Part shown: one piece after another, positions 1 to 64,000 of the stretch
Numbering within the stretch: the first letter of the stretch is position 1
Layout: every line of letters starts with the position of its first letter
Source of the DNA: Sphaerolaimus hirsutus
Taxonomy: Eukaryota; Nematoda; Chromadorea; Monhysterida; Sphaerolaimidae
Direction of reading: 5' to 3'
DNA: 64,000 bases
Assembly (NCBI GenBank): GCA_964036195.1
Contig: OZ038451.1
Coordinates: 27,607,927 to 27,671,926, forward strand
Translations under genes and position numbers: made by a program
The notes under the pieces: generated by a model
What the model saw: the letters and a program-made list of their open reading frames with translations, nothing else
Told to the model about the DNA's origin: nothing
The model's database searches: none

Positions 1-732
1 GTATTGGTCAACCAAGCCAAACTGATCGAAATAGCCTGGGTATGGCACCCTGCCATCAGCAAACAGTTGCAGCACCTTTGGCAGCACCAGGTGCGTGTTT
101 TTGCGGTCCGATCTTTTCTGTTTTGCATATTTCATTAAGATGTGTTTTTTATGAAAAAATGGGTGTCAAGAATACAATGGTTCTTTTACATAACAAGTCA
201 AGACAGCTCGACTTACCACCAAGGATTGCGGTGGCTCTTTGGTGTTTGTGAATTTACTCTCAAGGTAAGCTGTGTATGACACTGCGCACCAGTCGTACGA
301 GTTGCCGAATGTGATTGTGTTGTACTTTTCTGGCCGCAATGCACTCCATGTTGCTACTGTATAGTCTTCAGCATTGCGTTGTGAACACTGTTCGTATTCA
401 CAGCGGAAAAAACATCGGCTATCAAGTTGTTCTTTTTTGAACAGTGCATTCACGTAATCAGCCACTTCTCCAGTCAGATCCATGACTGGTCTGGTGACAG
501 TTTGATCAGCGCTTTTCCTTGCATCCGCAAAATCGTTGAGTGCGCTTCTCTCCTTTCTTCTGGCTTCTTTGTCACCTTTGTTGCCCATCAATCGCCACAC
601 GTGCACTGTTGTGTCAGCTCTAGCCTTATCAATACGTCTTTCATGCACAGCCTCAAGATTTTTTACGAGACTAGCGTCACCGTTTCTACCTCCTTTGGAC
701 ACGATATTCAGCAATTTTGCATCAGTTTGCAT
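1..732 (-). CDS. Left-edge gene, two internal/3' exons (partial, paralogue of the 12.7-14.2 kb gene)
   Basis: Two exons are visible. One runs 732-217, starting after an acceptor reading ACCAG and ending at donor GTAAGT (216-211). The next runs from 117 after acceptor AAACAG to the window edge. Both are in phase 0. The first exon encodes 172 residues rich in Lys, Arg and Asp, with two Cys pairs (CFFRCEYEQC). The second contains LPKVLQLFADGRVPY. The same order of exons, with clear protein similarity (LPKVLQLLADGR, a Cys-containing patch, a Phe/Trp-rich end), occurs at 12.7-14.2 kb, so these are paralogues. It may be a separate gene or the 3' continuation of the MULE/SWIM gene that ends upstream on the same strand; the paralogue stands without a MULE core, which favours a separate gene. 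The paralogue suggests a ubiquitin-protease-like C-terminus that would lie outside the window here. Function is otherwise unrecognised. Confidence 0.55.
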
Positions 733-957
733 CTGGTTTGTAGATTATCGTGGTACACGTATTTAGTGAACAAACACAAACAAAACAAAAAACGTACAGG
801 GAGCAGAAGAGTGTACAGCAAGGTATCCAGTGATGCTGTGCACTGCAGGATCATTGGATCCATTGATCGATCATTGTTTCCCCCTTTCCATGGGCTGAGT
901 TCACTGTGAAGGTAATACAGTGTAGAAATTGTAATGTATTTATTTTGAATAACTTAC

Positions 958-33200: not shown

Positions 33201-36200
33201 TATTCCGTTCCGTTTTCCAGCCGCTGAAAAATGTTTTCCGTAAAAAATTTTTTTGACACCCTAATCGCACCAAACCCCTGTCTCAAATACAACCCCCACC
33301 CTCAACTCACCAGGCCAATGCAACGTATTAGGCCAGCCACTAGAATCCTTGGAGCTCGGTGTATCAGAGCCCAGATAGGCTGCAGGGTCATTCCAATATT
33401 GGTACCTTCCAGTGCGAACTATGATCACACACTCTTCGTGAATGGGGCCATATTGTTCTTCCCAGTCTTCGATGTCCTGCGTGTTTGTTTTTTTTGGGGG
33501 GGTGCTTGAATAGGCCCGCACACTCCGTAAATGTTTACTGACTAGCGGGATTATTCTGTGGACCTTCGGTCCGGTTTTGTAGGGCCCTACACTTTCATCG
33601 CAAAAACTACATTTAAAAATTTCATTTTACATTTGTAAACACAATTGAAGTGTGCTAGTGAACTAGCAGCCGCTAAGCCTCCAATTTCAGTTATTTGACG
33701 CGCGCCACTTCAGTCAGATACGTTAGGAAATGTTGGCACTGAGCCAAAAAGACTCGCAAAAATCGAATTCGAACTTAAGATATAAGTAATCCTATTGAAA
33801 AATGCCAAACTGGCACAAAATTGTATAGTGAAGAGTCCATCAACTTTTTGACGATATTATCGTCATTGAAAACGTCATGAAGACCCACACCACGACAAGT
33901 ACTTTCTAACGTTGTTAGGTTCGCTTTGGCACTGTGCCAAGATCGAAAGATCACTGTGGCACTTGCTCACTCACCCCTTGTTTTCCGTGGAAAATAAAAA
34001 AGCAACTGACCGCAACGGTTATAAGGTAATCGCTATTACCATGTGCATGTTCTGGGATGTCGATTACGCAAGCTTCACCGATCAACTTGTGTATTGGAAT
34101 CTGCGTGATTAAAGGTATAAGTGTTGTATTCATAGGTACTTTTCACACGATACTCATCGTTTGTAAATGTGAGATGGGTATCTATTTGTTTTACCAGTGA
34201 CTGCATTTGAATTAGAAAGTTATTGATTTAATTCGGTAGATACCTGGTGCCGGTTCCGCAAAATGAGAAGTGAGGAGTGAAATGGCAAATGCGAATTAAA
34301 AGCGCAAAGGCAAAGTGAAATGGCAAGTGAATTGACAAAAGCGAAGAGCAATTACTTTTTATTTTTGTTTGTTGTTTTACTTCGCTTTTGCCAATTCACT
34401 TGCCGTTTCACTTCGCCTTTGCGTTTTTACAAAAGTTTTTTTTTTGAAGCTGTTGGCGAGCTCGTATCGCCCTATAACAACAAAGTGGGACAGGTGTTTT
34501 TGCATTAGTTTTTCTTTGACAGGCACCTCGCCCTAGGTTTAGCGTTAAACAGCTTTTGTCGTATCCAAAAGTACGTCGAGTGTATCCTAATGTTACTTCG
34601 CCTTTGCCATTTCAGATCTCACTTCTCATTTTGCGGAACTGGCCCCAGCTTTACGTGCCGGTTCGCTACGCAAAAAGGTTAAAATATTTAATATATAGTC
34701 GGCAGACATGATATTATACAGGTTTGGTCCACTTATGTTTCCCTTCGCTGAGCGTCAATGAAATTCAATATCTTACTGAACAGTGGGGTGCGATACATCT
34801 TAAATACGGTAGAAAAACGGTGCACAGTGGGTCGTGAATAGGGTGTCAAAAATTTTTCACTTTACGGAAAACGGAAAACGGAAAGGTAAAAAAATTTCAC
34901 TCAGCGGAAAACGGAAAACAGAAAGGTAAAAAAAAATTATCAGCCGGAAAACGGAAAACGGAAAAATGAAATGCCGGAAAACGGAAAACGGAGAGCAAAA
35001 TTTTCACGGAAACGGAAATACTCCTCGGGGGGTAACCAGATTATATGACCTCAGACAATCATAAAAAGGTAAGAGATACAACAGAGTTTACAACTTTCAC
35101 GTACCTGAAGTTACAAAAACCAAGTGAACAATGTTTGCATGGGAAAACAGAAAAGCTTATACACAAAAGAGTTTCCTCAATCAAATGAACAAATTTCATG
35201 TCTTGCATTGACAGCAGGTTTTTTATCCAACATCCATCGACTTGGACTTCTGCTGCACTTTCCTTGATGTGTTGCATGAGGGCTTGACCATTCGGTAACA
35301 TTTGCAGAATCAGCAGTCTTCCCAAATTGATAGGCAGGGGGGTCGTAACTTGATGTCGCAGGTTGACAAATCAGCCAAATCAGTTTGTGTGGTGATGTTG
35401 CGCAGACTGGCCAGGTAGTTGGGATTTCCAAGCAGAATCGAGCCATCAGCAGCAAACATCTTGACTCTGTGTTTTGTGAGCATGTCTCTCTCTTCACGTC
35501 TTTGTGAGCACGTCCGATACAGATTTGGATACAGATAAAAATTATGAATGACACAAGAACCTGGTAGAAAAAAACACCATAGTGGAAAAAGATAAATACA
35601 GATTGGAAAAATAATGGAAAAATGCCAGAAAACTGAAAATCGAGCCAGAAAATGGAAAAATGGAAACGGAAAGGTAAAAATTTTTCAGCCGGAAAACAGG
35701 AAAATGGGCCGGAAAAACGGAAATGGAAAGGTAAAAAAATTTCTGCTGCCAGAAAACGGAAAACGTAAAGGTAAAAAATTTTCAGCTGCCGGAAAACGGA
35801 AAACGGAAAGGTAAAAAAATTTCAGCTACCGGAAAACGGAAAACAGAAAGGTAACAAATTTTCCTGCGGATAGGCGGAAACGGAAAACGGAAACGGAAAT
35901 TTGACACCCTAGTCGTGAATATGTCAATATGTATAGTCAACAGACATATCATTCTACAAAATTGGAAAGTTATATTTTGTTCTTGTAGAGCGAAAGAGAA
36001 AGGAATTTAGTAAAAGAGAAAATTTAAAGATAGTAAGAAGGAAAATAAAAATGTGCTGTTCTTTACGCACTCGTTTACTCCAATTTTTGTGCCGATAGGT
36101 GCTGCAAATTTTTGATTATACGTTTACCTACGTTTAATCTAATTCATATTTAGAAAAGTTACACGCTATCGATTCATTTTGACGAAAACTTGTTACGTTC

Positions 36201-39200
36201 AAAATTTTGAATTCAGAAAACGTTCCCGCTTTGTATTTATTCAGATCCAGCCGACGCTTGGATGGCATCATGCCAAAAAACTCAACTACACTTTGACGGG
36301 GGTTTGAATTGTGCGGGCACAATTGAATAGTTTCATTCCGTATATGCGTAAGCACGAGTCACCAAAACAGAGTTCTACGGGTTGGATACAGCGTGCATGA
36401 TATGACATCATGCGACTCATTGTATAGTATCATGTCTGCCGACTATACATATTTCCGGGAAAGTCCGTATAATTCATAGACAACCTGGGGCGGGTACACT
36501 GCCAAGCCCTGTGAAATACTGTAAATGAAAAATGTCATGCAACGTGTCAAAAGTCATGTAAACTTCTTGAACTACCCCCACCCCACCATATCAATGGGCC
36601 AATTCCCCTGGGCCACATGCTCACTCCTTGTCACATGCTTGGGGCTGTCCATGTGCGTGCCTGTGTGCGTCACCATGTAGATCGTCTCGTAGAACACGTA
36701 GGCTGGATCCATGCCTGGCGGAGCGCTGATCATGCCTGGGGGGGGGTATTTTGATTTTGGGGGGGGGGGGTATTTGTGTTGTTGCTTGCGTTATTTTGAT
36801 AATTTTGTTCAAAAATTGTCGGGTTTACACTTCTCATTTCTGACGGATACGGTAAATATTGACAGATTCACACACTTTCGGTTGTCCAATTGAAGGTCTA
36901 ACTAAACTAGTGATGGTAAAAGCGCCAGGCGACAAACTTGCAAAGTGAGTTCAGTTGTGTGGGTGGGAGTGCAATTGTTGCATTCCCAGGTCACCTGAGC
37001 TTGATATGTGCGTTGTGCAGTCAGTCAAGCAAAATTTGACAGATGCATGTTGCTTATGCATGAGCCAGCTGCTCCATATTAGTCAATAGTCACGTTTGTT
37101 CTGCTCAACATTCACCCACATTTTTTTACTCTATCCGTAATTTCCGTTTTCCGTTTCCGTTTTCCGCAGACAAATTTTTTCCGTTTTCCGGCTGCTGAAA
37201 TTTTTTTCCGTTTTCCGTTCCATTTTCTGCCAACTTATTTCCTTTTCATTTTTCCAGCTAATTTTCCGTTTTCCAGCTAAATTTTCAGTTTTTCTGCTCT
37301 TCATCCGTTTTCTGGCTCAATTTCCAGTTTTTCCGCCTTTTTCCCATCTTCCGCCTCCATTTTTGTTTTTCCGCCTCATTTTACCTTTTTCTGGCTCAAC
37401 TTTCTGTTTTCTGTTCCAGCCAAACTCGTAAACATTCATGCATATTGTTAATTATGTAAAAAAATTCTGTTTCCTGCAAAATTTCAGCAAATTTTTTCCA
37501 GTTCCAGCAAAATTTCAGGAAATTTTCACCGTTTTCTGGCAAAATTTCCATGCATATTTCATTTTTCCATTTCCATCGGCCCCTTTTTCCGTTTTCCGGC
37601 CACTGAAATTTTTTTACGTTTCCGTTTTCCGCCAAGTGCAAATTTTATTCCGTTTTCCGGCCACTGATATTTTTTTACCGTTTCTGTTTTCCGTAAAAAA
37701 AATTTTTTTGACACCCTAGTGGTGACCTTCTCAGCCATTGGGGAAAAGGTGTAGGTACGTGTGAAACGCCTTGCGTTCAAGACAGCGCGTTTCACATTTT
37801 CATGTGAAACGCATAGAATGAAACGCGTTGGGAACTTAACGCGTTGCACCTCTGCGGCCAGCCTGGTGGACGCGTCAGCAAGCTTTGAATTTTGATGGGA
37901 ACAAGTTCTAGATTGATTGATTGATTGAACAAGGGACAATTGATTCTATCTCTAACAGACTAGATAAATTTCCTGCGCCTAACTCGTAAATTTCATATTT
38001 TGGACATGTCGAATTTTTACCTAAATTAGGTAGGTGGACTTTTGCATTTTCCCCAAACATGTCAAATTTGACACTATCGTATATAGGCATGTGATGTCAA
38101 AAAATTATGTAAAATTGTCTAAGATGGGAGTAGCCCCAGATGATGTTTCCGGACTTTACTAGAAATTTTCATATTTTGGACTTGTCGACTTGTAGCATTG
38201 GACGCCTCAATTGGTTGTCAACTAGTGGGTGTGGGAGTGTGACTTTTGAGTTCCCACTGTTTCTAATCCAAACTGACATGTGGGTTGCTATGCTTCATTA
38301 TTTAGAAAACTCATTTACAACAGTAAAGGTTTACAATAAAGGTGGTAGTGTAGGTTGACACTCAATTGTGTGGCAATGTTTTTTCATACTTGGTTCTTTG
38401 GAAAATATTTATTTATAGCCTGATTTTCACATATTCACCTAAAATTACACTTTAATTCTATTCTTAGAAGGATTTCTATCTCCAAATTGACACGCAAGCG
38501 TACCACATTTTTACTTAATTGAGTTCATTGTGAATAGCATAAATCCACTGTGTGAACTTTCCATCAGATACTTCTATAATGGTGGTTCATTTAGAGCTAA
38601 TTGTTTCATCACGAAAATTCTGTCAGTCAGGAAAACAGAGTTGTTAAAGTAATGGTACTTTTGAAAGAGTAAGTGTAACCGTAAATACACTTTCCTAATT
38701 TTCATTTTTTATACTTAAGTGTAAGGTGTTTTTAAAATACCGATGAAAGCGTGTAAAAGCGTAAGCATAAAATTTGCTGGAAAGGGCTTTCACTGTTGAA
38801 AATCAGAAACTGTTTTCACTCCTATCAATCAATGATCAATTAATAAATCATGTATACTCGGTGGACAGAACACCTACCTAGTATGGAAACCTACCATAAT
38901 TGAATGAATAAAATCTTGTGATAAATTTCCTAATCCATTATTCCATAGTAAAAGTGGTGAAAAACTGTATAATTTTGCTCCATTATTCAGATGGGTTATG
39001 GTGGGTTTTCATACTAAGTGTGAAAAAACATACATATGAGTACATATAACGCCGGGTATACATGCATTATTTAAAAATATTTATTGTCATTTATTTCAGA
39101 CTGTAACAAATTTAGCAGCATGAATTTGCCTGATAATGATGCTTTTCACCGTGTTAATGTTTTGCTGGTGAAGCAATGTGACACTCTGGTGTTTACATGC

Positions 39201-39887: not shown

Positions 39888-41922
39888 TATTTCATATTTT
39901 TCAAACAATGTTTCTGGGATTTTGCACAGAGAGATTTAATGATATTTTCTGCAAAATCTGGAAGGTTTGCAATTTTTTGGACAAAGACAAACCAGCAAGA
40001 ACTTATGCAGATATTTCAAAGTTACACATTCTGGTGGTAATTTTTCAAACATCTTTCATTTGGACAATTTGGGATGAATAGAAATGATATATTTCGTTGA
40101 ATAAATATTTTTGAAAATCTTCAAAAAGAAAATATAATTTAATATAAATACCGGGAAAGGCCTATAAATAAAATAAACAAAGAAGTATAAGACTTTTTGC
40201 TTTTTATAAAATATTATGAAAAAAATAACTAATAAAAATAAAAATTAATAATAACTGAAAACAGATAAAAGGTTTTTGAATGCTAACTGTGATGTCTACA
40301 GTGGATATTTACTAGTATTAATTCTGATGATAGGGACATCTTTTAACAGCAGCAATATAAATTGTCAGTCGCAGCAAAACTTTAGTAAACATGTCTTAAA
40401 GCCATCATTATTATAATCGGCACTTGTGTTCACTGTAACAAGTAAACTTGAAAACTAACAAACATTTAAATAAACATAGAAATTTACATGCCATTCAACT
40501 TAACTTGTCACTTACGTGAAAAATTATGTACCAGAGATGTCCAAATTACTGGGGGGTTTCAAACTGTATGTAAATGTAAAATAATTTGTTTTTACTCACC
40601 CATCCTTGAGTACAGACTTATGACTATGAGTAAATGTGAGAAAAAATATTTGTTTCCAGGACATTGTGAAACCGAGTACTTTTTTCAAAGAAAATTTAAA
40701 AGCAGGTACTTTTCCCATGGAAAATGTAAAAGTGAGTACTTTCTAGATTTTACACTGGAAGACATAAGATAACATATGTGTTTTTAAATTCAATCCAAGC
40801 TCCCCTGAAGATACATAACAGTGTAGTCACTTACTGCTTGTTTTGTTGTTGTTGTTTTTACTTCTCTACTTCCGCAATTTACTCCAGTACGCATTTGAGT
40901 TACCAGCTCAATATAAAGTGTCCTTAATCACGTTCACAAACCCAATAACACCTGTCCAGTGCTACTGGGCCATTTAGCACGTTCACAAACCCAATTATTT
41001 AGCAGTAATATATATTAAATAACAAATGAATCATTACAAATAAATACCGTAAATTTCCTCGAAATACCCCCAGGGGGTTTATTTTTTTAGAGTGGAAATT
41101 TTTAGGGGGTATTTAGCGGGGGCTTATTCGAGGGGGGTTATTATTTCATCAGAAATTTTCACGAAATTCATAGTAAAGAGTACGCTATTATATACACAAA
41201 ACTGTAATCAACGTGTTCAAGTAGGGACATGCATATTTGGATATATCAACGTCCATCGCTACGCAAACTGCGATGCAAACTGCAACCAATATACCTACCT
41301 ATATACATCATGTACATTGCATACATGATGTACATAATTCCAGGCGGGGGTATTTCGAGTCACATCAAAAAATGGGTGTGTGATGCGCGGTGAAGTGTCC
41401 TGAAGTGACTTCACGCAGACGCGCAATGTTGACGTGAAGACACTTCACTGCATTCCAGATGCTTCACGGCACTTCACGAACCATGCAAAGTATGCTGCAA
41501 AGGTTCGTGAAGTGCACTTCACAAATTTCGGTCTTCGTGAAGCTAGGTGAAGTTAGTGGAAGACACTTCACCGAAAACTTCGTGAAGTGTGTGGAAGTGA
41601 GTGGAAGTGTCTTCACAGAGCGCACTTCCACACACTTCACGAACCCATTTTTTGCTGTAAGTGGGGGGTCTATAATTTCCCAGCTCAAAAACACCTGGGG
41701 GTATTTCGAGGAAATACGGTAATTAAAAGTAAAAACAATCAACCAACCTTTTTGAATAGGCACCGTCTTAAATGGGTTCTCTTCATATTTTTGAATCGGG
41801 TACATCATGGCATTTTCATTTAAAGGGTGGGTCAAATCGAGCATGGAACATTTTTTCGTCAAAAAAGGAATACCCTTTATTATTGGCAGCGTGACAACAA
41901 CGAAATATAGCGAATGATGCAT
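30222..41922 (-). CDS. Cyclase-family metal hydrolase (kynurenine formamidase-like), complete six-exon gene
   Basis: Exons 41922-41744, 36725-36587, 34100-34011, 33476-33311, 30843-30725 and 30407-30222 join with matching phases into a predicted 292-residue protein, near the usual family length. It starts MHHSLYFVVVTLP, a possible weak signal peptide, then LDLTHPLNENAMMYP typical of the family N-terminus. Exon 2 has the diagnostic metal-binding motif HTGTHMDSPKH (pattern HxGTHxDxPxH). Exon 3 has IPIHKLIGEACVIDI, exon 4 VIIVRTGRYQYW, exon 5 GIASDT..SFD and NSVHA, and exon 6 GIENLANLGELP and GSPIRVFAYG, all in family order. Known relatives (PF04199: bacterial-type kynurenine formamidase, isatin hydrolase) hydrolyse amide or lactam bonds using a bivalent metal; the exact substrate is inference. 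The exon 1 donor (GTTGAT) is weak and was chosen because it preserves phase. Introns hold many transposons. Confidence 0.88.
30509..30675. repeat. 167-bp near-perfect hairpin in cyclase intron 5
   Basis: A 45-base arm starting AACACACACACTAGTTTACC (30509-30553) is followed at 30631-30675 by its exact or near-exact complement. The inner loop also pairs partly (AAACTGTTTT with AAAACAGTTT, CAGTACGAA with TTCGTACTG). Confidence 0.9.
30906..32208. mobile_element. Composite family P element with inserted DNA
   Basis: The left end CCGTGTTTCCTCGAAATACCC is preceded by TA, and the candidate right end is GGTAATTCGAGGTAATATGG near 32207. The interior is far longer than other family members and includes the family R foldback element 31197-31629, plus GGGGAGTTATTCAAGG-type words near 31880-31990. 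Assigning both ends to one element is an inference. Confidence 0.45.
31197..31629. mobile_element. Foldback element family R, copy 2
   Basis: Ends ATGCTGCGAT..TTACAGCTCGGG and CCCGAGCTGTAATCGCAGCAT match the 100-bp copy at 13075. A second inner inverted repeat (GTGTCCAAAGCTCAT with ATGAGCTTTGGACAC, about 31338 and 31493-31510) makes the whole block foldable. Confidence 0.85.
32675..33263. mobile_element. hAT-like element (family F, TTCCG-rich, ends TAGGGTGTCAAA), copy 1
   Basis: Starts TAGGGTGTCAAATTTCCG and ends TTTTGACACCCTA. Flanking octamers ATCGCTCC (32667-32674) and ATCGCACC (33264-33271) match at 7 of 8 positions. The body consists of TTTTCCGTTTTCCG-type repeats. It lies in cyclase intron 4, about 50 bp downstream of exon 33476-33311. 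Confidence 0.85.
34244..34650. repeat. Foldback repeat in cyclase intron 2
   Basis: GGTGCCGGTTCCGCAAAATG at the left pairs with CATTTTGCGGAACTGGCCCC at the right. Inner words such as CGCTTTTGCCAATTCACTTG pair with CAAGTGAATTGACAAAAGCG. It has the structure of a foldback transposon but no target duplication was identified. Confidence 0.7.
34839..35911. mobile_element. hAT-like element family F, copy 2, carrying a coding-like cargo
   Basis: Starts TAGGGTGTCAAAAATTTTTC and ends GGAAATTTGACACCCTA. It is bounded by identical octamers GTCGTGAA at 34831-34838 and 35912-35919. The arms (34839-35030 and 35600-35911) are GGAAAACGG repeats. The middle (about 35040-35590) is unrelated and contains a minus-strand coding-like fragment, described separately. 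Confidence 0.88.
35060..35535 (-). pseudogene. Captured coding-like fragment inside a hAT-like element
   Basis: On the minus strand one frame reads for about 75 codons (including KMFAADGSILLGNPNYLASL) until a stop near 35325. A second frame then continues as LPNGQALMQHIKESAAEVQV up to about 35130. The switch occurs around a C run near 35336-35341, suggesting a small indel. Composition is protein-like, in contrast to the surrounding repeats. I do not recognise the family. Because the 8-bp duplication encloses the whole unit, the fragment travelled with the element or arose by capture. An unrelated host exon spanned by coincident arms is the alternative. Confidence 0.5.
37133..37720. mobile_element. 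Family F TTCCG-rich element, truncated at its left end
   Basis: The right end TTTTTTTGACACCCTAG matches the family, and the body shares long TTCCG text with 32675-33263. No TAGGGTGTCA start is visible, so the left end is truncated or diverged. It lies in cyclase intron 1. Confidence 0.7.
38636..39624. mobile_element. hAT-like element family H, copy 2
   Basis: Starts CAGAGTTGTTAAAGTAATGG and ends TTTCGCAACTG, with identical octamers CAGGAAAA at 38628-38635 and 39625-39632. Its 989 bp include diverged interior DNA; a 63-codon open frame at 39084-39275 has no transposase features. It lies in cyclase intron 1. Confidence 0.85.
39625..41044. other. Intron DNA, no gene recognised
   Basis: AT-rich part of cyclase intron 1. 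Contains a TA microsatellite (39858-39890) and, at 40600-40770, text similar to the interior of family H elements (GGAAAATGTAAAAG, TTTTACACTGGAAGACATAA), so it is probably a diverged family H remnant. Confidence 0.5.
41045..41721. mobile_element. Family P MITE split by a nested family G MITE
   Basis: The outer ends CCGTAAATTTCCTCGAAATACC and GGTATTTCGAGGAAATACGG are flanked by TA. The 299-bp family G element (41361-41659) is inserted inside. The unit ends 22 bp 3' of the cyclase exon 1 donor region, at the very start of intron 1. Confidence 0.8.
41361..41659. mobile_element. MITE family G, copy 2 (nested)
   Basis: Ends CACATCAAAAAATGGG and CCCATTTTTTGCTGTA, flanked by AGT on both sides, consistent with a 3-bp target duplication as in copy 1. 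The interior consists of GTGAAGTG/CACTTCAC words in both orientations. Confidence 0.85.
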
Positions 41923-53446: not shown

Positions 53447-54059
53447 CTCTTGAGTGCGTTTTGTTGCCTTGAATTCCTGAAAAATTCAAAAACTATTTTC
53501 GAATTTTTGAATTTTTGAATTCTTGAATTTTTTGAAAAAAAATTCGATTTTTAAGTGTTTTTTCCAGGGGTGAAATAAAAATTTGAAAATTCTGAAAAAA
53601 TTCGAAAATTCAAAAACATTTTCAAATTTTCGAATCTTTTTTGCCATCGTTACTGTATATACACAAAAACCCTTCCCTAACATCTCTTAATCATCAGTTT
53701 TAACGTGTGTTCTGCATTGTACAGATCACAAACTGCGGTTAGCATTGAAAAAACCCGTCAATTTTTGGAAAATATAATTAAATATAATCTCAGAAAATCT
53801 CTCAAGAATAAAATATAATCAAATCTCTCTCAAAAAACCTGGAAAAAATATAAATAAATATAAATATCAGAATTTGTGAGATTTTCTGATATTTTTAAAA
53901 ATCTCAGAAAATCTCTCAAAAAGAAAATATAATTAAATCTCTCTTGAAAATCGTGGAAAAAATATAAATCTCAGAAAATCTTATATTTTCTGAGATTTTT
54001 TAAATATAAATCTCGCAGAGATTTTTTCAATGCTAACTGCGGCATTTGTCATGTACGTT

Positions 54060-54192
54060 CACGTTACACTCAATTTTAGGTGGGTAATTTGAGGGGGGGG
54101 GTTATTAATTCCTCAGCCGAAATTTAGGGGGGTATTTCGAGGGGGGGGGGGGGTTAATTCAAGGGGGGCGGATAATTCGAGGTAATCCGGTA
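54060..54192. mobile_element. Family P remnant with G runs
   Basis: G runs and GGATAATTCGAGGTAATCCGG mark a right end. A matching left end (CCGTATTACCTCGAAATACCC) at 51323 may belong to the same, heavily interrupted copy. Confidence 0.5.
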
Positions 54193-54444
54193 TCCAATTA
54201 TCGTGTATCTTATTTCTTCTAAGTAAACGACATACCTCAAATAGAACGGCAGGTATAAAGTAGACAAAAAAGTAGAACGCTCTTCTGTTTATTTGAAGAA
54301 ATACGGTAAATTGACTAAAACTACACCCAAACGAAAAATACAATATACTCTATTTATTCTAAAAACAACATGATGACTCCACTTTCATTTATTTTACATG
54401 TATTCTGACTCCTTCTAACGCGTGCCGGATTTCCATATCAGCAT

Positions 54445-54967: not shown

Positions 54968-55464
54968 ATCAGCATCTATCTCACCCATATAATCATTTTT
55001 AATCACCTCCTAATCTCCCTTCACAGTCCACATGCTTCTTATATTTCCTATATTTTGTTTGTGCCGTTGAAACTTCGGTCCCTCAGCACATCACAAACAA
55101 CGATTTTGTATATACTAGGATTTCAAACAATTTCTTGCGGAATAATATTTACCCCCCCCCCCCTTGTTTAAACCCCCCCCCCTCGGGAGCGCTATGAAAC
55201 AATCACCCCCCAGGGGGTATTTCGAGGAAATACAGTACATCCCATATTTATATACTCGAATAATCCCCCGCTTTGAATAATTCCATCTTGAATAATCCCC
55301 CCCTTGAATAATTCCCCCACTTAACACTACAACGTGTGTTCTGCATCATACAGATCACAAACTGCAGTATTTGTCGTGTACATTCTCTTTACACTCAACT
55401 TGGGGTATTTCGAGAGGGGGTATTCAAGGGTGGTTAACTTGAGGTAATATGGTATTTTTTCAGA

Positions 55465-56067: not shown

Positions 56068-59000
56068 ATGGAAACTTCGAAGCTTTCCATTCTAATCAAC
56101 AATTACAAATTCTCAAAATTTTCAACAGAATTACTGGATTACACGCAAAATAATGGCTTTTTCAACCTAGAGTTCTATCCAGTTTTGTGTGAAATTTTAT
56201 TCACCATCTTCAAGGTTAAGCCGGAGTTACAGCATAACGATAAATATAAGGAATATCGAATGGTATATCTGTACACAAGTCAAATACATAATTGTATGTT
56301 TCTACGGAATTGCTTACGATCCATTTCGAGTTGTGATACTGTGTAATTCTTGTAACATGTATGGGGGTGCAATTCTATACAATGCTATTCATCATCTCGA
56401 CAACTACTCTATCATATCCACACGTATAGGTGCTGAATCTAGCTCGCTGGCCCGCAAACGCCGCGTTGCAGCCTTGGAAAAATCAAACAGAAATTTGGGT
56501 GGCATGAACCTCAAGGCACCAATGGAATCGTTGAACAACAGACCCATGACGATGGATGAAATGCATGCACATTTGTGTGAGTCGGGGGGAGTCTTGGAAC
56601 ACACGGTTAGGCGGACATTTATATATATACAGGGTGGTCATAATAATAATAATAATAAAAATGACCGAGTACTGAATGAAAAAACTAACAGTAAATTCGT
56701 GGCCTTTATGTCAAAAAAATGTTTAAATGTATCATCAACAAAAAGAAACTTGATTTTTGCTTATGTGTATTTGAAAATGGCAGTTTACATACCAAAAAAA
56801 TTGAATGTTGATAACCTTGCAGATCCCGATGCACCACAAAAGGGTTACTTTTTCAATTGGCAAAGTTACTCTGCTGAACTACGGCGCCGCTACACAGTGG
56901 GTGGTGCGCCGTTTGAATTAGACACAATGATGGGTGAATTGAGAACATGTGTTAAATCAATGGATCCAACATGCAATGTTTCCAGGGCAGTTATGTTGAT
57001 GAGCCACATGCTGCACCACACAATGTCGGAGTTCAATCTGATGACTAAATTTAGCGAAAAGGTAAATATCTTGATTCCTATTTTCTCTATAGATGGGGTG
57101 AATATTATACTATCTGAGCTGATAGTTGCACCTCGTTTCTTAAGGCTGGAAAGGAGTGAAAACTGCGATTACATTGTAAATATGCATAATATAATAAATA
57201 AAACACAAACGAAACCATTTTTGCCACAAATCACAAAAAGATGTTCAATGGGTACATTTGATTACGCACACCTCACCCATAACACGTATAGATTTATGCT
57301 TCAACTGTGCAACACATTTATAACGCATCTCAAAATTTGCCTGCAGGTGGAAGTTCTGTTGGCGGATTTGGCAAGCGGCATAAAGGAAGATTGTGATGGA
57401 ATTTATGATGGAATGGAACAAATGGAGGGTGACATCCGGATGTTGATTGATGACACCGTGAAAATTGATGATAAGCTGGACGAGAACGCAAGGGAGGTCA
57501 GTCAGTGGGGCTCTTGTCGATTTATCGTTGTTTTTATACAGGCTTTCAGCCAGTCTAAAATAGTGTCAAAATATCTACAAAGTCATTGTAATGATATGAC
57601 TAGTATAAACAGTGTGTATGAAGTGCTTAAAATCACTAGAAAAACCCATAAACTGTTCATAAACACTGCTAAGGTGCTTCGATTCCATGTTTATTCATCT
57701 ATGGGAAACGTGATCCTAAATGACGTCATTTTTTCCCCTCAGTGCACATGCAAAAGGGATGAACTACTGGCTAGTTTGACGGAACTAAAGGACAAAGTTC
57801 TGACACTGGAACAGAGACCTGCCACTTTTGCAACCGTAGCATCCTCGATGGGTGTCACGAAACGTAAAAATACAACATCCGAGGTGGGGGTTGAGAACAA
57901 GCGCGTCAAATTGGTGGAAAATACCCAGGCGACAGAAAACGTGGCTAAGGTACATTTTGCACTATCTAGATTTGATAAATGCAGTGGTAGGATACACTAT
58001 AGAGATGGGGGTCTGAATAGACAATACAGGGGGTACTGTATACACATGACTATAAATATACATAGAAAATGTTATCTGATTGCTGAGAACATTGCTCACA
58101 CTGTCGTTGAGTTACTGTGTCACAATAATTCCCGACATCGCAAAAAGTTATGTTTTCAGACATCAATCTCGCTGGGTGCCATTCCGAAGGAATTTAGAGG
58201 CCGTACTGCGAACCAAGACATTCTGGTGACACTCACGGATCCCCTTGACATTTTGGGGTTTATGTTTCCGCTCAATGTGATGTACGACGGTCAAAAATTC
58301 CCATGCTTGGCATTGGCCATGATGATGGTACGTATATATAACAGTGCATATTCAAAAATATCTGAGTATGAAATTGTATTCAGTCAAAAACAAATTCTGA
58401 AAACAGAAAACATATCAATACAGTTTTTAAAAGAGATCTTTAAAAAAATTCTAAAAAAAGTTGTTTTTTTAAATTTTCTAAAAAAGTATTTAAAATATTT
58501 AAAAAAACAAATATTACAATTGAGCCCTACTCTTTCGCAGGCTGAAGCCAAGGCGGTGGGCGGCACAGATTTAGAAAATGCTGTCTATGCATGTAATGCA
58601 TATTTTGTTCAGCACAATGGCGTAAATTTTGACCGAAAGTATAATGAATTTGTCGGCCGCATGAATGCGGCCTGGAGTCAGATATGGCAAGAGCAACTTT
58701 CGCAAGGCAACAGCGCCATGGGGCCCCGCTGGTTCAACCCTGGGTCAAGCTCATATGAAATGCTATATACCAGTTTGGAAGAGGCGAAAAAAACGGTGGC
58801 CTATCGCAATTTGAAAAAAATCATGAGAAATACAGTTACGAATAATCCGCAATTTCGGTGGGTGCTTGTTTGGGTTATCGTGATCACTACCAAGGGCTTT
58901 TTTAACGGATTTTTTTCTAACGGAATTACTATGCTTGAATCAATATCGTACGTTCTGATAGTATATTTAAATAACTCTACAACGACAACAATAGAAGACA

Positions 59001-60751
59001 CTTCTGTTTACAAACTGAAAATTTGGATGTTATGGAATCACATCTTAGTTTGAGCAAATCTTAAAATATCACTGATGTCCAATAAATCTGAAAACGATAC
59101 GCGATTGGTGTTACACAGCGTAGGTACCAATGTTGTCTGTACACATCGCTATATCCCGACTCATATACGCAGACAGGTTCTCTGGCAAACTGGGAAGGAA
59201 AGGGATGGCAATACGGTTCGAGATAACCCCAGATTTATTCGCTGCACGGGGTCGTTCCCCAACAGCGGTTTCCGTGGCGCGTTAATGTGCGGAGCTGATC
59301 GATTGTCAACCGAGGTAATTACCTTTGTATCTACCTACATAGCCTCTACCACCGTTCCAATGAAACGCATGACATATCGACATTACAATCAGCGGGTTTA
59401 TCGACCCGTCATCTTATCGACATATATTTCCTCCACGATGTTGTTTTTGGGACTTTTAGATATCTCTGATGACTATGTCGGGAAATATTCAACCTATCGA
59501 AATAACGACTTATCGACAAGTCGATATATAGACTTATCAACACATGGACTTATCGACCGATTTACTATCTTATCTCTCTACACAAACGTTAAGTTCTATT
59601 GTACATCGGAAATGTCTCGTGAATGTATAATGGTACAATCGCTGTTTATATCAATGACGAAAAAGCATCTGTGCAGGGTATCTGTATTTCATAATTGTAT
59701 GTATGGATCTATAAACGTCGTAAACTGCATAGTACTTATCAATACATCACAGGTCGCCTTGAGCACGATGGTAGGGGCCTGCTATTTGTCGCCCTTTATG
59801 AACTTATGGGGCGAATGCCTGATGGAAACCAGGGCATGCATCACTGAAGAACTGGCTTACAGGATGCGAGATGTCAACGGGAAATGGGTTACGGCCCCTG
59901 AATATGGTCTTTTTGACCAATATGACAAAAGGGGTCATTGGAAAATAGATGACCCCACAAACAGTATTCGTGGTGTTTTCGGCATGCTTCGAGATCCCAA
60001 TAAGGTACGAGCTGTTTCAGTTAAGATTGATAAAAACCCAAAATTCATATCAGTCAACTGGTGGCTAGACGTAGGCTTGTCGATCAGTAAAGATACGTGG
60101 AACGGTTACAGATATCTGAAAAGGGGTAAAGTCGGGAAAAAGCTATTTTCGATACCTATTTCTGGCTTAAAAATATCAACTAACAAAAGTATATGGCTAT
60201 ATACTCTCTTTGCTATGGTGATGAGAAACAAGACCTCATCACGGTGTGAAGATAAGTGTTCAGCCATTTATATTGAATCTACTGAATTAAATTTACCGGG
60301 TATACTACATGTCAATACGGAGTGTATGCTATGCTATACAAAATTATACTATACCGCAACAAAATTGTTTGGGTCGGTGAGTTTAAAAGTGTGTGTTATT
60401 GCGCTTCGCTTGTCCATATATGCTTGCAAATATGCTGTAACATTTAACACCGTGCTACCACACATGCATGACTACATCAATAACAAATCACGCAAAAATA
60501 TGCCTGCTTCCATGTTGTTTGCCGTGAGCTGTGATAAATGTTCATTTTTAGAAACGTTCACACACAACAATATCATTCCGCAGAATCGCCGTGGCCGGGG
60601 TGGTCCATCCATGCAGCAGAGGGGTGCCCCCCGGGGGGGTAGAGGTGCTTCGGCGTTTCGGCAACCCCTATGCAGGCCGTGTTCCAAAAAGCCCGTATTG
60701 ACTGCCAAGAGCCCGCGATTGAAACTGATGAAAGTGAAACTGACACAATAG
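56068..60751 (+). CDS. Gag-like multi-exon gene with stop-free introns (671 residues when spliced)
   Basis: Predicted exons: 56068-56293, 56430-56576, 56823-57061, 57347-57496, 57743-57949, 58160-58327, 58541-58857, 59173-59314, 59753-60004 and 60584-60751 (stop TAG). All donors are GT and acceptors AG, phases match, and the sum is 672 codons. Features: acidic, coiled-coil-like region at residues about 205-275; a KRK...NKRVKL cluster at about 290-310 resembling a nuclear localisation signal; and an Arg-Gly-rich tail at about 617-640 (RRGRGG, RGGRGA) like the nucleic-acid-binding end of retroelement Gag proteins. No enzyme motif is seen. Its last 82 bases overlap the next gene in another frame. 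Unspliced, the same DNA is open from 56171 to 60748 except for one TGA at 59051. Gag identity is an inference from the tail, coiled coil and neighbour; the start at 56068 is uncertain, with an alternative ATG at 56189. Confidence 0.65.
56577..56822 (+). other. Stop-free intron 2 (246 nt = 82 codons)
   Basis: Donor GTGAGT, acceptor CCTTGCAG, phase 1. Read in the exon frame it has no stop although it is AT-rich and contains AATAATAATAATAAT, which is read as Asn-Asn rather than TAA. Confidence 0.75.
57062..57346 (+). other. Stop-free intron 3 (285 nt = 95 codons)
   Basis: Donor GTAAAT, acceptor GCCTGCAG, phase 0. No stop in the exon frame. Confidence 0.75.
57497..57742 (+). other. Stop-free intron 4 (246 nt = 82 codons)
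   Basis: Donor GTCAGT, polypyrimidine-rich acceptor TTTTTCCCCTCAG, phase 0. No stop in the exon frame. Confidence 0.75.
57950..58159 (+). other. Stop-free intron 5 (210 nt = 70 codons)
   Basis: Donor GTACAT, acceptor GTTTTCAG, phase 0. Hand count of stops: 0 in the exon frame, 4 and 10 in the other two forward frames. Confidence 0.8.
58328..58540 (+). other. Stop-free intron 6 (213 nt = 71 codons)
   Basis: Donor GTACGT, acceptor CTCTTTCGCAG, phase 0. Hand count of stops: 0 in the exon frame, 8 and 4 in the others. Repeated TTTAAAA/TCTAAAA words are all phased as TTA-AAA or CTA-AAA, never TAA. Confidence 0.8.
58858..59172 (+). other. Intron 7 (315 nt = 105 codons) with the only in-frame stop
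   Basis: Donor GTGGGT, acceptor TACGCAG, phase 2. A single TGA at 59051-59053 interrupts an otherwise open frame. Confidence 0.7.
59315..59752 (+). other. Stop-free intron 8 (438 nt = 146 codons)
   Basis: Donor GTAATT, acceptor ACATCACAG, phase 0. Contains tandem TTATCGACA-like words, all kept in an open frame. Confidence 0.75.
60005..60583 (+). other. Stop-free intron 9 (579 nt = 193 codons)
   Basis: Donor GTACGA, acceptor ATTCCGCAG, phase 0. The longest of the series, with no stop in the exon frame. Confidence 0.75.
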
Positions 60752-62904
60752 GGGTGTTGAATTTGCAAAATGTCAAACAACAAAATGAAAACATGGCCTC
60801 TTCGAGTGGTGAGTTTCACATTCATCAAACCTGCGACGTGAATAGTTTTAAAAATTCCAAGTTCGTGAAGGGGGTAAATAATATACAAAATTTTTTATCG
60901 ATTCTAAAAAAAAATTTTCTATCGATTTTAAAAATATCAGATGCTCGAAAATTAGACTATATTTACGTAAATAATCTAAATAGTGAACGTTTCTCTACTA
61001 AATCCCCTGAATTTTTTCCCCTGAATCCCCTTAAATCCCCTGAAATAACTACATCTCACGTATCATATAAAGGTGTGCGTATTCAATTACCATACACAGA
61101 AACCTCCGAGGTGGCAATTTTGAACGCGCGCGTGGCGCAACTTTTGGCAAAAATTGAGGGGAAAACATCTCTTGGCGCAGTCAAATCAGTCGATTCGAAA
61201 AACGGGGGTGTAGATACTGCCAGTGCAAAACCGGAAGACGTGGGGGGTGTCCAAAACGAACAACCACCCCCATTTCTGTTGAATGATGGCGATTCAGTAG
61301 ATGAGGACGATGCCAATTTGTGTACCCCCCACGTGCCACTCGAAACTGCCGAAGAGGGTGAGGTGTTGGATCGCGGCAATTTATTCGAAGACAATGATCC
61401 GGACTTTGGTGGGTATTTGCATGAATGGGGGGTTCCATTTTTGGGTTTAAACGTGCGGCTTTTTCTCTCTGATAGCAATGAATTGACCAAATATCAATGT
61501 GGACAGCTGAGAAAATTTTACATATATTTCAAACACCGGCAAATATACGTAATTTTGTTAACTGCATTACTGTCAATGTATTTTCCACTCACAGAATCGC
61601 CCCCCGCTGCCCCATCCGACAATATTCCGTCGACGACAGTGCCACCCAAGGCAAGTGTAGAGCGTGATGATAAACTGGACGTTTTTGCCGCCAGAACTAA
61701 ACAGCTTTCTTCCCACACACAGGTACGTGATATGTTAAGCACGTATCGCGGACATAATAGGGGTGGCACTGTAATTGGGCCGACACCGTATATTGAGTTC
61801 TGTGACCTGCTCCCGAAAAACCAGAAAAAAATCGAAAAATTTTTGAGACATCTAATGGAAAGGGGGCGCATTCCTGAACAGAAACTACTCAGGGAGCCGC
61901 AACTCAATAATACGCTGCTGGCTCCAATTTCAGTGGTTCGCAAATTGCGCATCAGCAGCCCCTTCGGTCCAATGACCGGTTTTCGCCAGTCTGACAACCG
62001 CGCGATGCATGAGGAGATAAATGATTTTGACGTTACTACTGGACTGTCTACTAACTACTTTTTTTCACTGTTGATTTGCGGGGACAGTACCAGTGTGGGC
62101 CTGTCTATTGAATTCGTAAAACATGTTTCTACGCAAAATTTAGCTATAAAAATTGAATCTACTTCCACGCTATTTTCTGGCCAGAGATTACCGTGCATTG
62201 GGACAATTCTGAAATACGTAAAAAATCCGACCCCCTACGATGTGGTGCTTGTCAGGGCTGTGCTAAATAGCACGGATTTAGAACATGCACTAGCTATCAA
62301 ATCTCCTGGTGTTGATTTGAGGTCCAATTTCCTATCTCCCGTATTTGAAATCTTCAAATCGATAATTGACACTGGAAATCTAAAATTACAACCCCATGGC
62401 CGTATAATTCTAAGCCTCATTGGTCCCACGCTACCTGATTTCAACTGCTCAACATGGTGTGAACAATTGGCGAAAGAAATCTTCTACTTTTTTCTTGATT
62501 TGGAGCAGTCGCTAACGGAATTTTTGCGGGCGCGCACAAAACGAGTCATGGTTTTGCCGATTATGGGCTACTGTCTATCCAATTATGAAACAATGGGCTT
62601 GGAGACGCCTGTTCAAGCCATGGTGCGCCTAATATCACGGGATGGCTTACACACTTCCCCATCTGGACATAAGCTGATTGTGCACTTAACCCTGGACACG
62701 TTAAAGAAAATGTGGGTTACCTGTACAAATAAGTTTGAAAATATACAGAAAAGTATGTACATAATTATACATCGCCCGTTTATAGGCAGCGGCCACGAGA
62801 AAACGTCAACGCGAGCTGAAACGCGGCCCGCCAAAAAACCAGCGTTCAATAACTTCATTTATGGAGAATCACAACATCGGTTGGAACTTTTTTATACCAA
62901 AAAT
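60670..62904 (+). CDS. SGNH/GDSL hydrolase-domain gene, overlapping the gag-like gene (3' end not seen)
   Basis: Predicted exons 60670-60808, 61100-61408, 61595-62711 and 62790-62904; the last two junctions are less sure. The first 82 bases overlap the gag-like gene in the -1 frame. The N-terminal part is acidic and low-complexity. Exon 3 holds an esterase domain: LLICGDSTSVGL with GDS codons at 62080-62088 (nucleophile Ser), an Asn-containing block VLNSTD near 62266, PHGRIILSLIGPTLPD, and a C-terminal DGLHTSPSGHK with Asp 62641 and His 62650 (D-x-x-H). GDS-to-His spacing, about 188 residues, suits SGNH hydrolases. SGNH domains are known in CR1-like LINE ORF1 proteins and in some tyrosine-recombinase retroelements; reverse transcriptase, if present, would lie beyond the window. 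After 62904 a GTACGT donor starts intron-like sequence that stays open to 63757. Confidence 0.65.
60809..61099 (+). other. Stop-free intron 1 of the SGNH gene (291 nt = 97 codons)
   Basis: Donor GTGAGT, acceptor CATACACAG, phase 1. No in-frame stop. Contains local CCCCTGAA/CCCCTTAAAT duplications kept in frame. Confidence 0.75.
61409..61594 (+). other. Stop-free intron 2 of the SGNH gene (186 nt = 62 codons)
   Basis: Donor GTGGGT, acceptor TCCACTCACAG, phase 1. No in-frame stop. Confidence 0.7.
62712..62789 (+). other. Possible stop-free intron 3 of the SGNH gene (78 nt = 26 codons)
   Basis: Donor GTGGGT, acceptor TATAGGCAG, phase 2. Short and less certain; it could be coding. Confidence 0.45.
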
Positions 62905-63759
62905 GTACGTATACATACGTCTGAGCCGACAAATGAATCAAAAATGGGAGCGCCTCGTTTTCTTCATTTCTATTTATCAAAACAATTTTACCGAACGTTT
63001 CTATCAAAACTTTCAAATTTTCTATACATGAATACTTTATGTGTACATAAATATGGCGGGAAAGTACATTCACCAGGGGTAGAGAACTTTGGAAGTTTAA
63101 TACCATTCCCCATACACAGAGGCGCCAACGTGAAAAGTGACGTGAAACAACTACAGGCGACAGACTGGCCACAAACGTGTTGTAGATTTATTACGTTGAA
63201 TATAAAACTGCTGGCCATACGGTGTGATATTTGTGTCGCAATCTCAAATACTGTGCAAATATCTGAAGTCGCAGATTGCAATGTAGATACTATTGAACTA
63301 CATATGCAAAAAAATGGAAATGTATTTGATAGCAGAAAATCTACATCGCAATATGCCTACTCTCAGATTCAATCGAATGTCCAAAACGGTGGATATTGGA
63401 CAAACTTTTTACTGTTCTACCTAACGTTCATCCGTTTATTTATCACAAAGCACGTTTCATCAGCACAGCGTGATAAAACGTTCAATATTACTGCATTTAT
63501 TAACACACGCTTTGATAGTGTCATGTATCGATTTTCCTACTGGTATACTGTCTGGATACCATTTTTACCACTTTTAAAAATAAAACTATTTAAAAATATT
63601 TTAAAATTTCTAAAAAATACTGCAAAATACTTAGTGTTTTTAAATACACTTTTCTGTGATGCTGGTTCGTTAAAATTCAAACCGTTCAAAACGTTCAAAA
63701 ACTTTAAAAAAAAACAGCTTATTAAACTTTTTAAAAACAAGATTCCGTTCCCTCTATGA
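62905..63759 (+). other. Open intron-like tail (285 codons, stop at 63757)
   Basis: Starts with donor-like GTACGT and continues in the SGNH-gene frame for 285 codons. The end is very AT-rich (63560-63757), and TTTAAAA/TTCTAAAA words are again phased to avoid stops. No convincing acceptor before the stop; a candidate CTTCTAGCAG lies just after it. It is either the last coding segment or an intron whose 3' end was lost. Confidence 0.5.
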
Positions 63760-64000
63760 AAGAGTAGCAGTAAAATTAGTGGTGCCTGTCGGTGGTGCAG
63801 TCCTCGCTTCTAGCAGGCTGACGACTTTGAAAAAAAGGGAAAATATCAAAATACAATATGCAAAATTATTCATAACCGAAATTTTCCCTTTTTTCACATT
63901 TTTCTCTCTTTACGATTCGTTTTTACTAAAATTCATCATTGCCTACTGTGTGTATGTTAAAAAACAGTTTAGCTATGCAGAATTTTCCCGGATCTGGATC
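63760..64000 (+). other. Right-edge sequence, nothing recognised
   Basis: Contains inverted words AAAAAAGGGAAAAT (63832-63845) and ATTTTCCCTTTTTT (63880-63893) that form a small hairpin. No exon could be supported before the window ends. Confidence 0.5.

What the first reader, a model, noticed from the sequence alone, without database searches (positions are those of the whole stretch)
56577..62789. Eleven consecutive introns that are all 3n long and almost free of in-frame stops
Reading the exon frame through introns 56577-56822, 57062-57346, 57497-57742, 57950-58159, 58328-58540, 58858-59172, 59315-59752, 60005-60583, 60809-61099, 61409-61594 and 62712-62789 gives 3,087 nt with one stop (TGA 59051). 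Every length is a multiple of three. Two introns counted by hand have 0 in-frame stops against 4 and 10, and 8 and 4, in the other frames. Chance cannot explain this in AT-rich DNA. Other genes here behave normally: reading past donors at 2726, 34010 or 33310 hits a stop within about 7-20 codons. Possible causes: selection for a translatable unspliced RNA (for example a retroelement genome RNA evading nonsense-mediated decay), a deliberate long isoform, or in-frame insertions that merely mimic introns. I know of no described family with this property across a whole gene pair.
Basis: partly seen in the sequence, partly recalled or inferred. Interest (0 to 1): 0.93.

Follow-up and report, generated by a model that had tools for sequence, protein, structure and literature searches.

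The report
Retrotransposon whose introns are all translatable
A large LINE-type jumping element carries a dozen or so introns that have proper-looking splice sites yet are kept free of stop codons and in frame, so its RNA can be read as protein spliced or unspliced, which suggests that the unspliced RNA both makes the copying enzyme and is what gets copied.

Summary
Confirmed: the 11 segments are all 3n and hold 1 in-frame stop against 83 and 91 in the other sense frames (about 68 expected). The window holds a broken copy of a ~13 kb non-LTR retrotransposon; APE endonuclease and reverse transcriptase lie just past the window. Nine of 56 scored RT hits in the 348 Mb host genome lie in one open frame of 4,226-4,609 codons. 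The segments behave as introns: GT on the predicted base in 71 of 72 introns of 12 diverged copies; one copy lacks two neighbouring introns exactly. Apart from lacking stops they look nearly non-coding and share no sequence between copies. Where the usual GTRAGT donor would be an in-frame stop (phase 2) it is not used (0 of 19 against 30 of 63). Host CCT genes behave normally. The APE-RT part is intron-free in the copies aligned. Best reading: splicing makes Gag and hydrolase; the unspliced RNA is the copied template and must itself be translated through to the RT. No RNA data were available.

The parts
56171..56431 (+). stop-free intron-like stretch before the first conserved exon, ending AG at 56431; probably the rest of an upstream intron
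   Evidence: open in frame; called non-coding 56171-56428; in L010 and L016 exon islands and intron-like stretches lie further upstream
56432..56576 (+). exon e1 (Gag-like part)
   Evidence: aligned in 10 of 12 other copies
56577..56822 (+). intron 1, 246 nt, phase 1
   Evidence: 0 in-frame stops vs 14 and 5
56823..57061 (+). exon e2
57062..57346 (+). intron 2, 285 nt, phase 0
   Evidence: 0 vs 7 and 11
57347..57496 (+). exon e3
57497..57742 (+). intron 3, 246 nt, phase 0
   Evidence: 0 vs 10 and 6
57743..57949 (+). exon e4
57950..58159 (+). intron 4, 210 nt, phase 0
   Evidence: 0 vs 10 and 4
58160..58327 (+). exon e5
58328..58540 (+). intron 5, 213 nt, phase 0
   Evidence: 0 vs 4 and 8; an intron here with exact GT and AG in 12 of 12 other copies
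58541..58857 (+). exon e6, the query that found 13 loci in the genome
58858..59172 (+). intron 6, 315 nt, phase 2; holds the single in-frame stop TGA 59051
   Evidence: 1 vs 7 and 9; exactly absent in copy L032
59173..59314 (+). exon e7
59315..59752 (+). intron 7, 438 nt, phase 0
   Evidence: 0 vs 6 and 11; exactly absent in copy L032
59753..60004 (+). exon e8
60005..60583 (+). intron 8, 579 nt, phase 0
   Evidence: 0 vs 15 and 12
60584..60808 (+). exon e9 (RGG-rich tail of the Gag-like part); the frame is broken here in this copy (open frames overlap 60643-60751)
   Evidence: one continuous frame in L010
60809..61099 (+). intron 9, 291 nt, phase 1
   Evidence: 0 vs 10 and 12
61100..61408 (+). 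exon e10 (acidic)
61409..61594 (+). intron 10, 186 nt, phase 1
   Evidence: 0 vs 5 and 4
61595..62711 (+). exon e11, SGNH/GDSL-hydrolase-like domain (GDSTS and DGLHTS motifs)
   Evidence: both motifs invariant in 6 copies; Lipase_GDSL in 2 of 6 copies, best E 0.0066; no hit for the window protein alone
62712..62789 (+). intron 11, 78 nt, phase 2
   Evidence: 0 vs 2 and 2
62790..62904 (+). exon e12
62905..64000 (+). largely stop-free, fast-evolving, hydrophobic linker up to the APE domain (APE starts about 64016, RT about 65066-67480, both in L009); splice structure unresolved; open frames change at 63674-63757 in this copy

Best explanation
The segments are spliceosomal introns of a giant LINE-type (non-LTR) retrotransposon. 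They are held 3n and stop-free by selection on the unspliced RNA. SHOWN from sequence: in intact copies one open frame runs from the N-terminal part through the introns to the end of the RT; splice-site positions are conserved across copies whose silent sites are saturated; intron sequence changes freely except that it may not contain an in-frame stop; the APE-RT part is free of introns in the copies aligned; a small host sample has normal introns. INFERRED: spliced RNA makes working Gag-like and hydrolase proteins, while unspliced RNA is the template. As LINE RTs prefer the RNA they were translated from (cis preference, general knowledge), an intron-bearing RNA can be copied only if ribosomes pass through its introns to the RT; nonsense-mediated decay of unspliced RNA would act in the same direction.
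For: Open frames of 4,226-4,609 codons at 9 of 56 scored RT hits (frame lengths of four copies agree with my own reading). GT exact in 71 of 72 introns of 12 copies; AG exact in 57, within 2 nt in 67. Of 66 well-bounded introns 53 are 3n and 48 are 3n and stop-free; in five copies 29 of 29. Codon-position make-up overall within a null that only forbids stops: 79.4 against 67.3 (sd 15.9) over 11.9 kb, 6.7 per kb against 23.3 per kb for window exons (window alone). No intron-intron blastn hit among 77 introns, while exon e6 keeps pN 0.03-0.20 at pS 0.74-1.03 in 19 pairs. Donor nt 2-4 read TAA/TAG/TGA in 30 of 63 phase 0/1 introns and 0 of 19 phase 2 introns (Fisher 3.9e-5). Copy L032 joins e6-e7-e8 exactly, without introns 6 and 7, at a locus listed with a 4,347-codon open frame; its fetched 3 kb are open in one frame. 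RT part aligned without intron-sized gaps in 4 other copies, APE part in 8. Shared inverted repeat and (TAA/ATT)n run at the 3' ends of 3 copies. Host CCT genes: 0 of 9 inter-exon gaps stop-free.
Against: No RNA or protein data: splicing and translation of retained introns are inferred. Spliced RNA would seem to encode the RT in frame too, so fully intronless copies might be expected; none is among the rows shown (a cut list), which cis preference alone does not explain. The copies are old lineages (RT 55-67% identical to the query); no recent pair was found to show introns passing through one round of copying. Target-site duplications were not convincing. 13 of 66 introns are not 3n, and 84 in-frame stops occur, 27 of them in 3n introns; they sit in seven copies whose frame is broken at other places too. 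Single cells of the composition test depart from the null (A at position 3, z 3.7; G at position 2, z -3.2), so a weak further constraint or a misfit of the null is possible. The 19 phase-2 donors come from only two intron positions.
Confidence: 0.68

Rival explanations
1. The segments are not introns but fast-evolving, AT-rich linkers or variable domains of a giant polyprotein.
For: The whole frame is open in intact copies; no RNA evidence of splicing; small departures from the stop-free null in single cells.
Against: GT on the exact base in 71 of 72 while what lies between is unalignable; acceptor CAG in 76 of 77 (acceptors within 2 nt of the predicted place); phase-dependent donor choice; exact joint absence of introns 6 and 7 in L032; overall codon-position make-up of stop-free random DNA.
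Confidence: 0.1
2. Stop-free 3n introns are a habit of this host's introns in general.
For: 4 of 28 crudely predicted introns of the minus-strand gene at 1-8000 are 3n and stop-free.
Against: CCT genes: 50 stops in the upstream exon frame over 9 gaps between exon matches (4,160 nt, not exact introns) against 63 and 64 in the other frames; 0 of 9 stop-free. Minus-strand gene: 54 in-frame stops in 3,401 nt of predicted introns. GTRAGT..YYNCAG segments elsewhere in the window: 3 of 84 3n segment-frames stop-free.
Confidence: 0.02
3. Retained introns give functional alternative proteins (a deliberate long isoform), so they are translated for their own product.
For: They are translatable; the linker before APE is hydrophobic in several copies.
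Against: No similarity between homologous introns, lengths from 69 to 812 nt, and no clear compositional trace of protein constraint.
Confidence: 0.12
4. Only decay avoidance matters: the unspliced genome RNA must escape nonsense-mediated decay, and RT made from it is unimportant.
For: Predicts the same 3n, stop-free introns; counter-selection of stop-less 3n introns elsewhere is linked to decay (passages of PMC2911113 read).
Against: Does not by itself predict that introns are missing from the APE-RT part.
Confidence: 0.25

Closest known systems
APE-type non-LTR retrotransposons (LINEs) whose ORF1 has an esterase/SGNH domain
   Same: APE endonuclease plus RVT_1; RT closest in sequence to R2 and L1 RTs among solved chains; SGNH-like domain; short 3' end with microsatellite tail. 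An esterase in non-LTR ORF1 is described in PMC3905857 (title and start of abstract seen in the listing).
   Different: About a dozen introns in the Gag/hydrolase half; a single frame of ~13 kb; hydrolase in frame upstream of APE-RT.
Penelope-like elements
   Same: Retroelements that carry introns and disperse intron-containing genes (passages of PMC3846280 read).
   Different: [quoted passage not shown] the endonuclease here is APE, not GIY-YIG; no rule of stop-free introns appears in the passages seen.
Exitrons
   Same: Spliceable segments without stops, more often 3n than introns, GC below that of exons (passages of PMC4484396 read).
   Different: Exitrons are parts of protein-coding exons, with GC above ordinary introns; here the make-up is close to non-coding DNA with stops removed and sequence is not conserved.
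Retroviral and copia-type use of spliced and unspliced RNA (recalled, no paper read; one search found none)
   Same: Splicing separates a messenger form from the genome form.
   Different: There the intron is itself a coding region; here it is filler that must merely be passable.

Membership tests
non-LTR retrotransposon (LINE) | RVT_1 reverse transcriptase | tested here: met
   E 1.6e-30 (L022), 2.5e-32 (L009, the window copy), 4.2e-30 (L027)
non-LTR retrotransposon (LINE) | APE endonuclease upstream of RT | tested here: met
   PF14529 E 1.6e-7 (L010), 4.3e-11 (L009), 9.3e-9 (L027)
non-LTR retrotransposon (LINE) | short 3' end with poly-A or microsatellite tail | tested here: met
   inverted repeat (seen by eye, not folded) plus (TAA/ATT)n in the window copy, L022 and L023
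non-LTR retrotransposon (LINE) | target-site duplication | tested here: inconclusive
   best exact repeats 9-10 nt, within chance
spliceosomal introns | GT..AG ends at homologous positions | tested here: met
   GT exact 71 of 72; AG exact 57 and within 2 nt 67 of 72
spliceosomal introns | removed from RNA | not testable with these tools
   indirect only: exact absence of introns 6 and 7 in L032
exitron | segment is protein-coding exon sequence | tested here: not met
   codon-position make-up overall within the stop-free null, no conservation
Penelope-like element | GIY-YIG endonuclease | tested here: not met
   APE in three of the five frames scanned, no GIY-YIG listed
DIRS/Ngaro element | tyrosine recombinase | tested here: not met
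   no such family listed for the five proteins or the five
named LINE clade (CR1, I, Jockey, R1 ...) | RT phylogeny | not tested
   no reference set of RTs on hand

The most novel reading that the evidence does not exclude
A retrotransposon lineage in which cis preference of the reverse transcriptase has turned every intron into a 'passable' sequence: splice sites are kept for making Gag and hydrolase, stops are purged so that the genome RNA can code for its own RT, and even the choice of splice donor is bent by the reading frame. About half of the ~13 kb frame would then be random, non-functional protein translated only to reach the RT, and introns would be inherited through RNA with only rare loss.
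Probability: 0.5. Interest if true: 0.95.

Novelty: new variant of a known kind. Interest (0 to 1): 0.9.

Why it matters
Elements copied through RNA are expected to lose introns. This family keeps about a dozen across very old lineages and points to a way of doing so: make them translatable. It offers a natural, evolution-scale test of cis preference and of decay of unspliced RNA, and a set of introns under one very clean constraint (no in-frame stop) that reaches into the splice donor itself. It may also be a natural source of long random peptides.

Tried and rejected
DIRS/Ngaro identity was considered early from the hydrolase-like motif and dropped when APE and RVT_1 appeared. A genome-wide habit of the host was rejected; one search listed 'open frames' of up to 1,050 codons for some chained CCT rows, but the local frames of the four exon matches checked in L030 are 51-135 codons, so that column is not to be trusted for chained rows. 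In one search the minus-strand loci were read in the wrong orientation; one search replaces them. An extra segment inside exon e11 of seven copies looked like an intron, but its ends are not clear; left open. My note that introns 5 or 6 are absent in two C3 copies is wrong: one search shows them present in L033 and L034 (the joined match ran into intron sequence); only L032 holds. Six further rows that reach across an exon border (C6:20166341, C4:5115870, C2:6772099, C9:11949103, C7:11207488, C7:3845907) were not inspected. The structure model of the hydrolase exon had mean pLDDT 31.9 and was not used. Searches of viral contigs with three queries gave no relatives. Rfam and tRNA scans of the window: nothing.
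Full report
What was checked. The 11 segments at 56577-62789 all begin GT, end AG, are multiples of three and together hold one stop in the exon frame (TGA 59051), against 83 and 91 in the other two sense frames and 71, 43 and 75 in the antisense frames. Markov nulls with the same dinucleotides expect 67.6 stops. A codon HMM started from general protein and AT-rich models, with no knowledge of splice sites, puts after EM 18 of 22 intron ends within 30 nt; the other four are off by 41, 44, 77 and 83 nt, and it also marks 62017-62412 inside an exon as non-coding; without EM it was coarser. Generic splice-site scores (tables recalled) rank the donors and acceptors high among all GT and AG of the window (combined P 4e-10 and 5e-6).

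What it is. The genome search places the window in a 348 Mb eukaryote genome (unnamed) and finds exon e6 at 13 loci, this one included, the others 68-77% identical. I fetched 10 kb around each of the other 12 and the 10 kb after the window. Two copies (L010, L016) are open in one frame over the whole 10 kb, and with their neighbouring stretches over about 12.9 and 12.8 kb. Pfam finds an APE-type endonuclease in three and a reverse transcriptase in three of five downstream frames, both for the window's own copy in L009. The RT is closest to R2 and L1 RTs among solved chains. Three copies end, some 80-110 nt after the frame, in a shared inverted repeat (seen by eye) and a (TAA/ATT)n run. It is therefore a non-LTR retrotransposon with a Gag-like part, an SGNH-like hydrolase (motifs GDSTS and DGLHTS invariant in 6 copies; weak Lipase_GDSL match in 2 of 6; the meaning of the motifs is recalled), then APE and RT. 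The window copy is broken: a TGA in intron 6, changes of open frame at 60643-60751 and 63674-63757, and a TGA in the RT.

The giant frame is the family's normal state. Of 56 RT hits scored (1,247 candidates), nine, the query's own copy included, lie in open frames of 4,226 to 4,609 codons, and others in frames of 3,000 and over; further frames above 4,100 codons appear. I read only some of these myself: the listed frames of L010, L016, L018 and L021 agree with my reading, and three 3 kb stretches fetched later (L032-L034) are each open in one frame throughout.

The segments are introns. In the 12 other copies I could bound 72 introns by the ends of aligned exons: GT falls exactly on the predicted base in 71; AG exactly in 57 and within 2 nt in 67. 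After dropping 6 with an end further off, 66 remain: 53 are 3n, 48 are 3n and stop-free, with 84 in-frame stops against 401 and 443; 27 of the 84 are in 3n introns. Five copies have 29 of 29 introns 3n without a stop; the exceptions lie in seven copies whose frame is broken at other places too. Homologous introns show no similarity between copies (77 introns, 0 blastn hits at 1e-5) while exons are under strong purifying selection at saturated silent sites (e6, 19 pairs printed: pS 0.74-1.03, pN 0.03-0.20). The codon-position make-up of the 48 clean introns (11.9 kb) is overall what stop-free random DNA gives (79.4 against 67.3, sd 15.9), though single cells depart (A at position 3, z 3.7; G at position 2, z -3.2).

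The frame reaches into the splice sites. In a phase 2 intron the common donor GTRAGT would put a stop codon in frame at intron bases 2-4. Such triplets occur in 21 of 47 phase 0 and 9 of 16 phase 1 introns but in 0 of 19 phase 2 introns (Fisher 3.9e-5, window included). The corresponding triplet for phase 1 occurs in 0 of 16 against 12 of 66 elsewhere (P 0.06). The 19 donors come from two positions, but from lineages whose silent sites are saturated.

Splicing leaves a trace in the genome. A search with the spliced e5-e8 protein gave 212 matches (134 of 505 candidates scored; the list is cut). No row shown covers the whole query, so no fully spliced copy is among them. One row joins e6, e7 and e8 over exactly 711 nt. 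Read directly (L032), introns 6 and 7 are precisely absent there, intron 5 is present, and the stretch is open in one frame; L033, which looks close to it by eye, keeps both introns. Exact joint loss of neighbouring introns is the known mark of reverse transcription of a partly spliced RNA (general knowledge). Two other rows that looked joined were not; six more were not inspected. Among 132 exon junctions in the 12 copies, 91 could be placed (72 tight, 19 loose) and none has a gap under 50 nt; 41 could not be placed.

Controls. In host CCT genes found by family PF00118, 0 of 9 gaps between exon matches in four loci are stop-free in the upstream frame, with 50 stops there against 63 and 64; these are gaps, not exact introns. 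In the minus-strand gene at 1-8000, 28 crudely predicted introns hold 54 in-frame stops; 12 are 3n, 8 are stop-free, 4 are both. Donor-acceptor segments of 150-600 nt elsewhere in the window are stop-free in 3 of 84 3n segment-frames.

Where the introns are. An HMM trained on the window marks 14 intron-like stretches before APE in L010 and 15 in L016, with 1,818 and 1,807 of 3,332 codons intron-like in all. It is rough: it also marks a piece of APE in each and a piece of the hydrolase exon in L010, and merges two introns. By alignment with L010/L022 the RT part runs without intron-sized gaps in 4 other copies (in one, L026, with a frame break) and the APE part in 8, some only in part; 5 of the 15 target stretches gave no match, mostly because they end before it. 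This is what one expects if the unspliced RNA must yield a working RT but not a working Gag or hydrolase.

How it most likely works. Shown from sequence: splice sites kept, introns passable, one frame, APE-RT without introns in the copies aligned, small host sample normal. Inferred: spliced RNA supplies Gag and hydrolase; unspliced RNA is copied; it must be translated through its introns because the RT acts on its own RNA and because untranslatable unspliced RNA would be decayed. Not explained: why fully spliced copies are not seen. One thought is that the splice between e12 and the APE exon does not keep the RT in frame, since possible donors and acceptors there differ in phase between copies (sequences, judged by eye), but I could not fix those sites.

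What is known. Counter-selection of stop-less 3n introns has been reported in several eukaryotes (passages of PMC2911113; of PMC4484396). Exitrons are stop-free but coding. Penelope-like elements disperse intron-containing genes, said there to be unlike all other retrotransposon types (passages of PMC3846280). An esterase in non-LTR ORF1 is in PMC3905857 (listing only). Searches for LINEs with introns, stop-free introns and introns in retrotransposons listed no paper that, by title and start of abstract, describes this; the library lacks most subscription journals.

Noticed in passing
window 62905-64000; L010 8200-8980, L016 8280-9080 in element orientation: Between exon e12 and APE lies a stop-free, unconserved, strongly hydrophobic stretch of roughly 230-400 codons; possible donors at its start differ in phase between copies, so splicing here may decide whether RT stays in frame.
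   Followed up: partly
L016 6415-7334, L018 6827-7194, L020 6625-6899 (also L012, L013, L014, L017): Seven copies have an extra segment inside the hydrolase exon; in L016, L018 and L020 it is stop-free in frame. The one in L016 is largely a KYPKYP-coding tandem repeat, still in frame.
   Followed up: partly
L024/L010 and L025/L016, 5' ends: Upstream of e1 these copies have further exon islands (one begins MSDKPKRKIGRPRS in L016) separated by stop-free intron-like stretches; I did not search the window upstream of 56171 for them.
   Followed up: partly
G000, RT hits: The best match of the query RT to any other scored copy is 67%: many old lineages, unlike the usual bursts of near-identical LINE copies.
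   Followed up: no
window 32694-33263, 37141-37718, 34850-35050, 35624-35912; flanks of the L010 copy (L022, L024): Repeats built of TTTTCCGTTTTCCG-like units lie in several places of the window and beside another copy.
   Followed up: no
window 3710-3990, 30905-31011, 41040-41370, 54035-54200, 55160-55440: Short interspersed repeats rich in CCCCTCGAAATACCCCC, some with long C or G runs.
   Followed up: no
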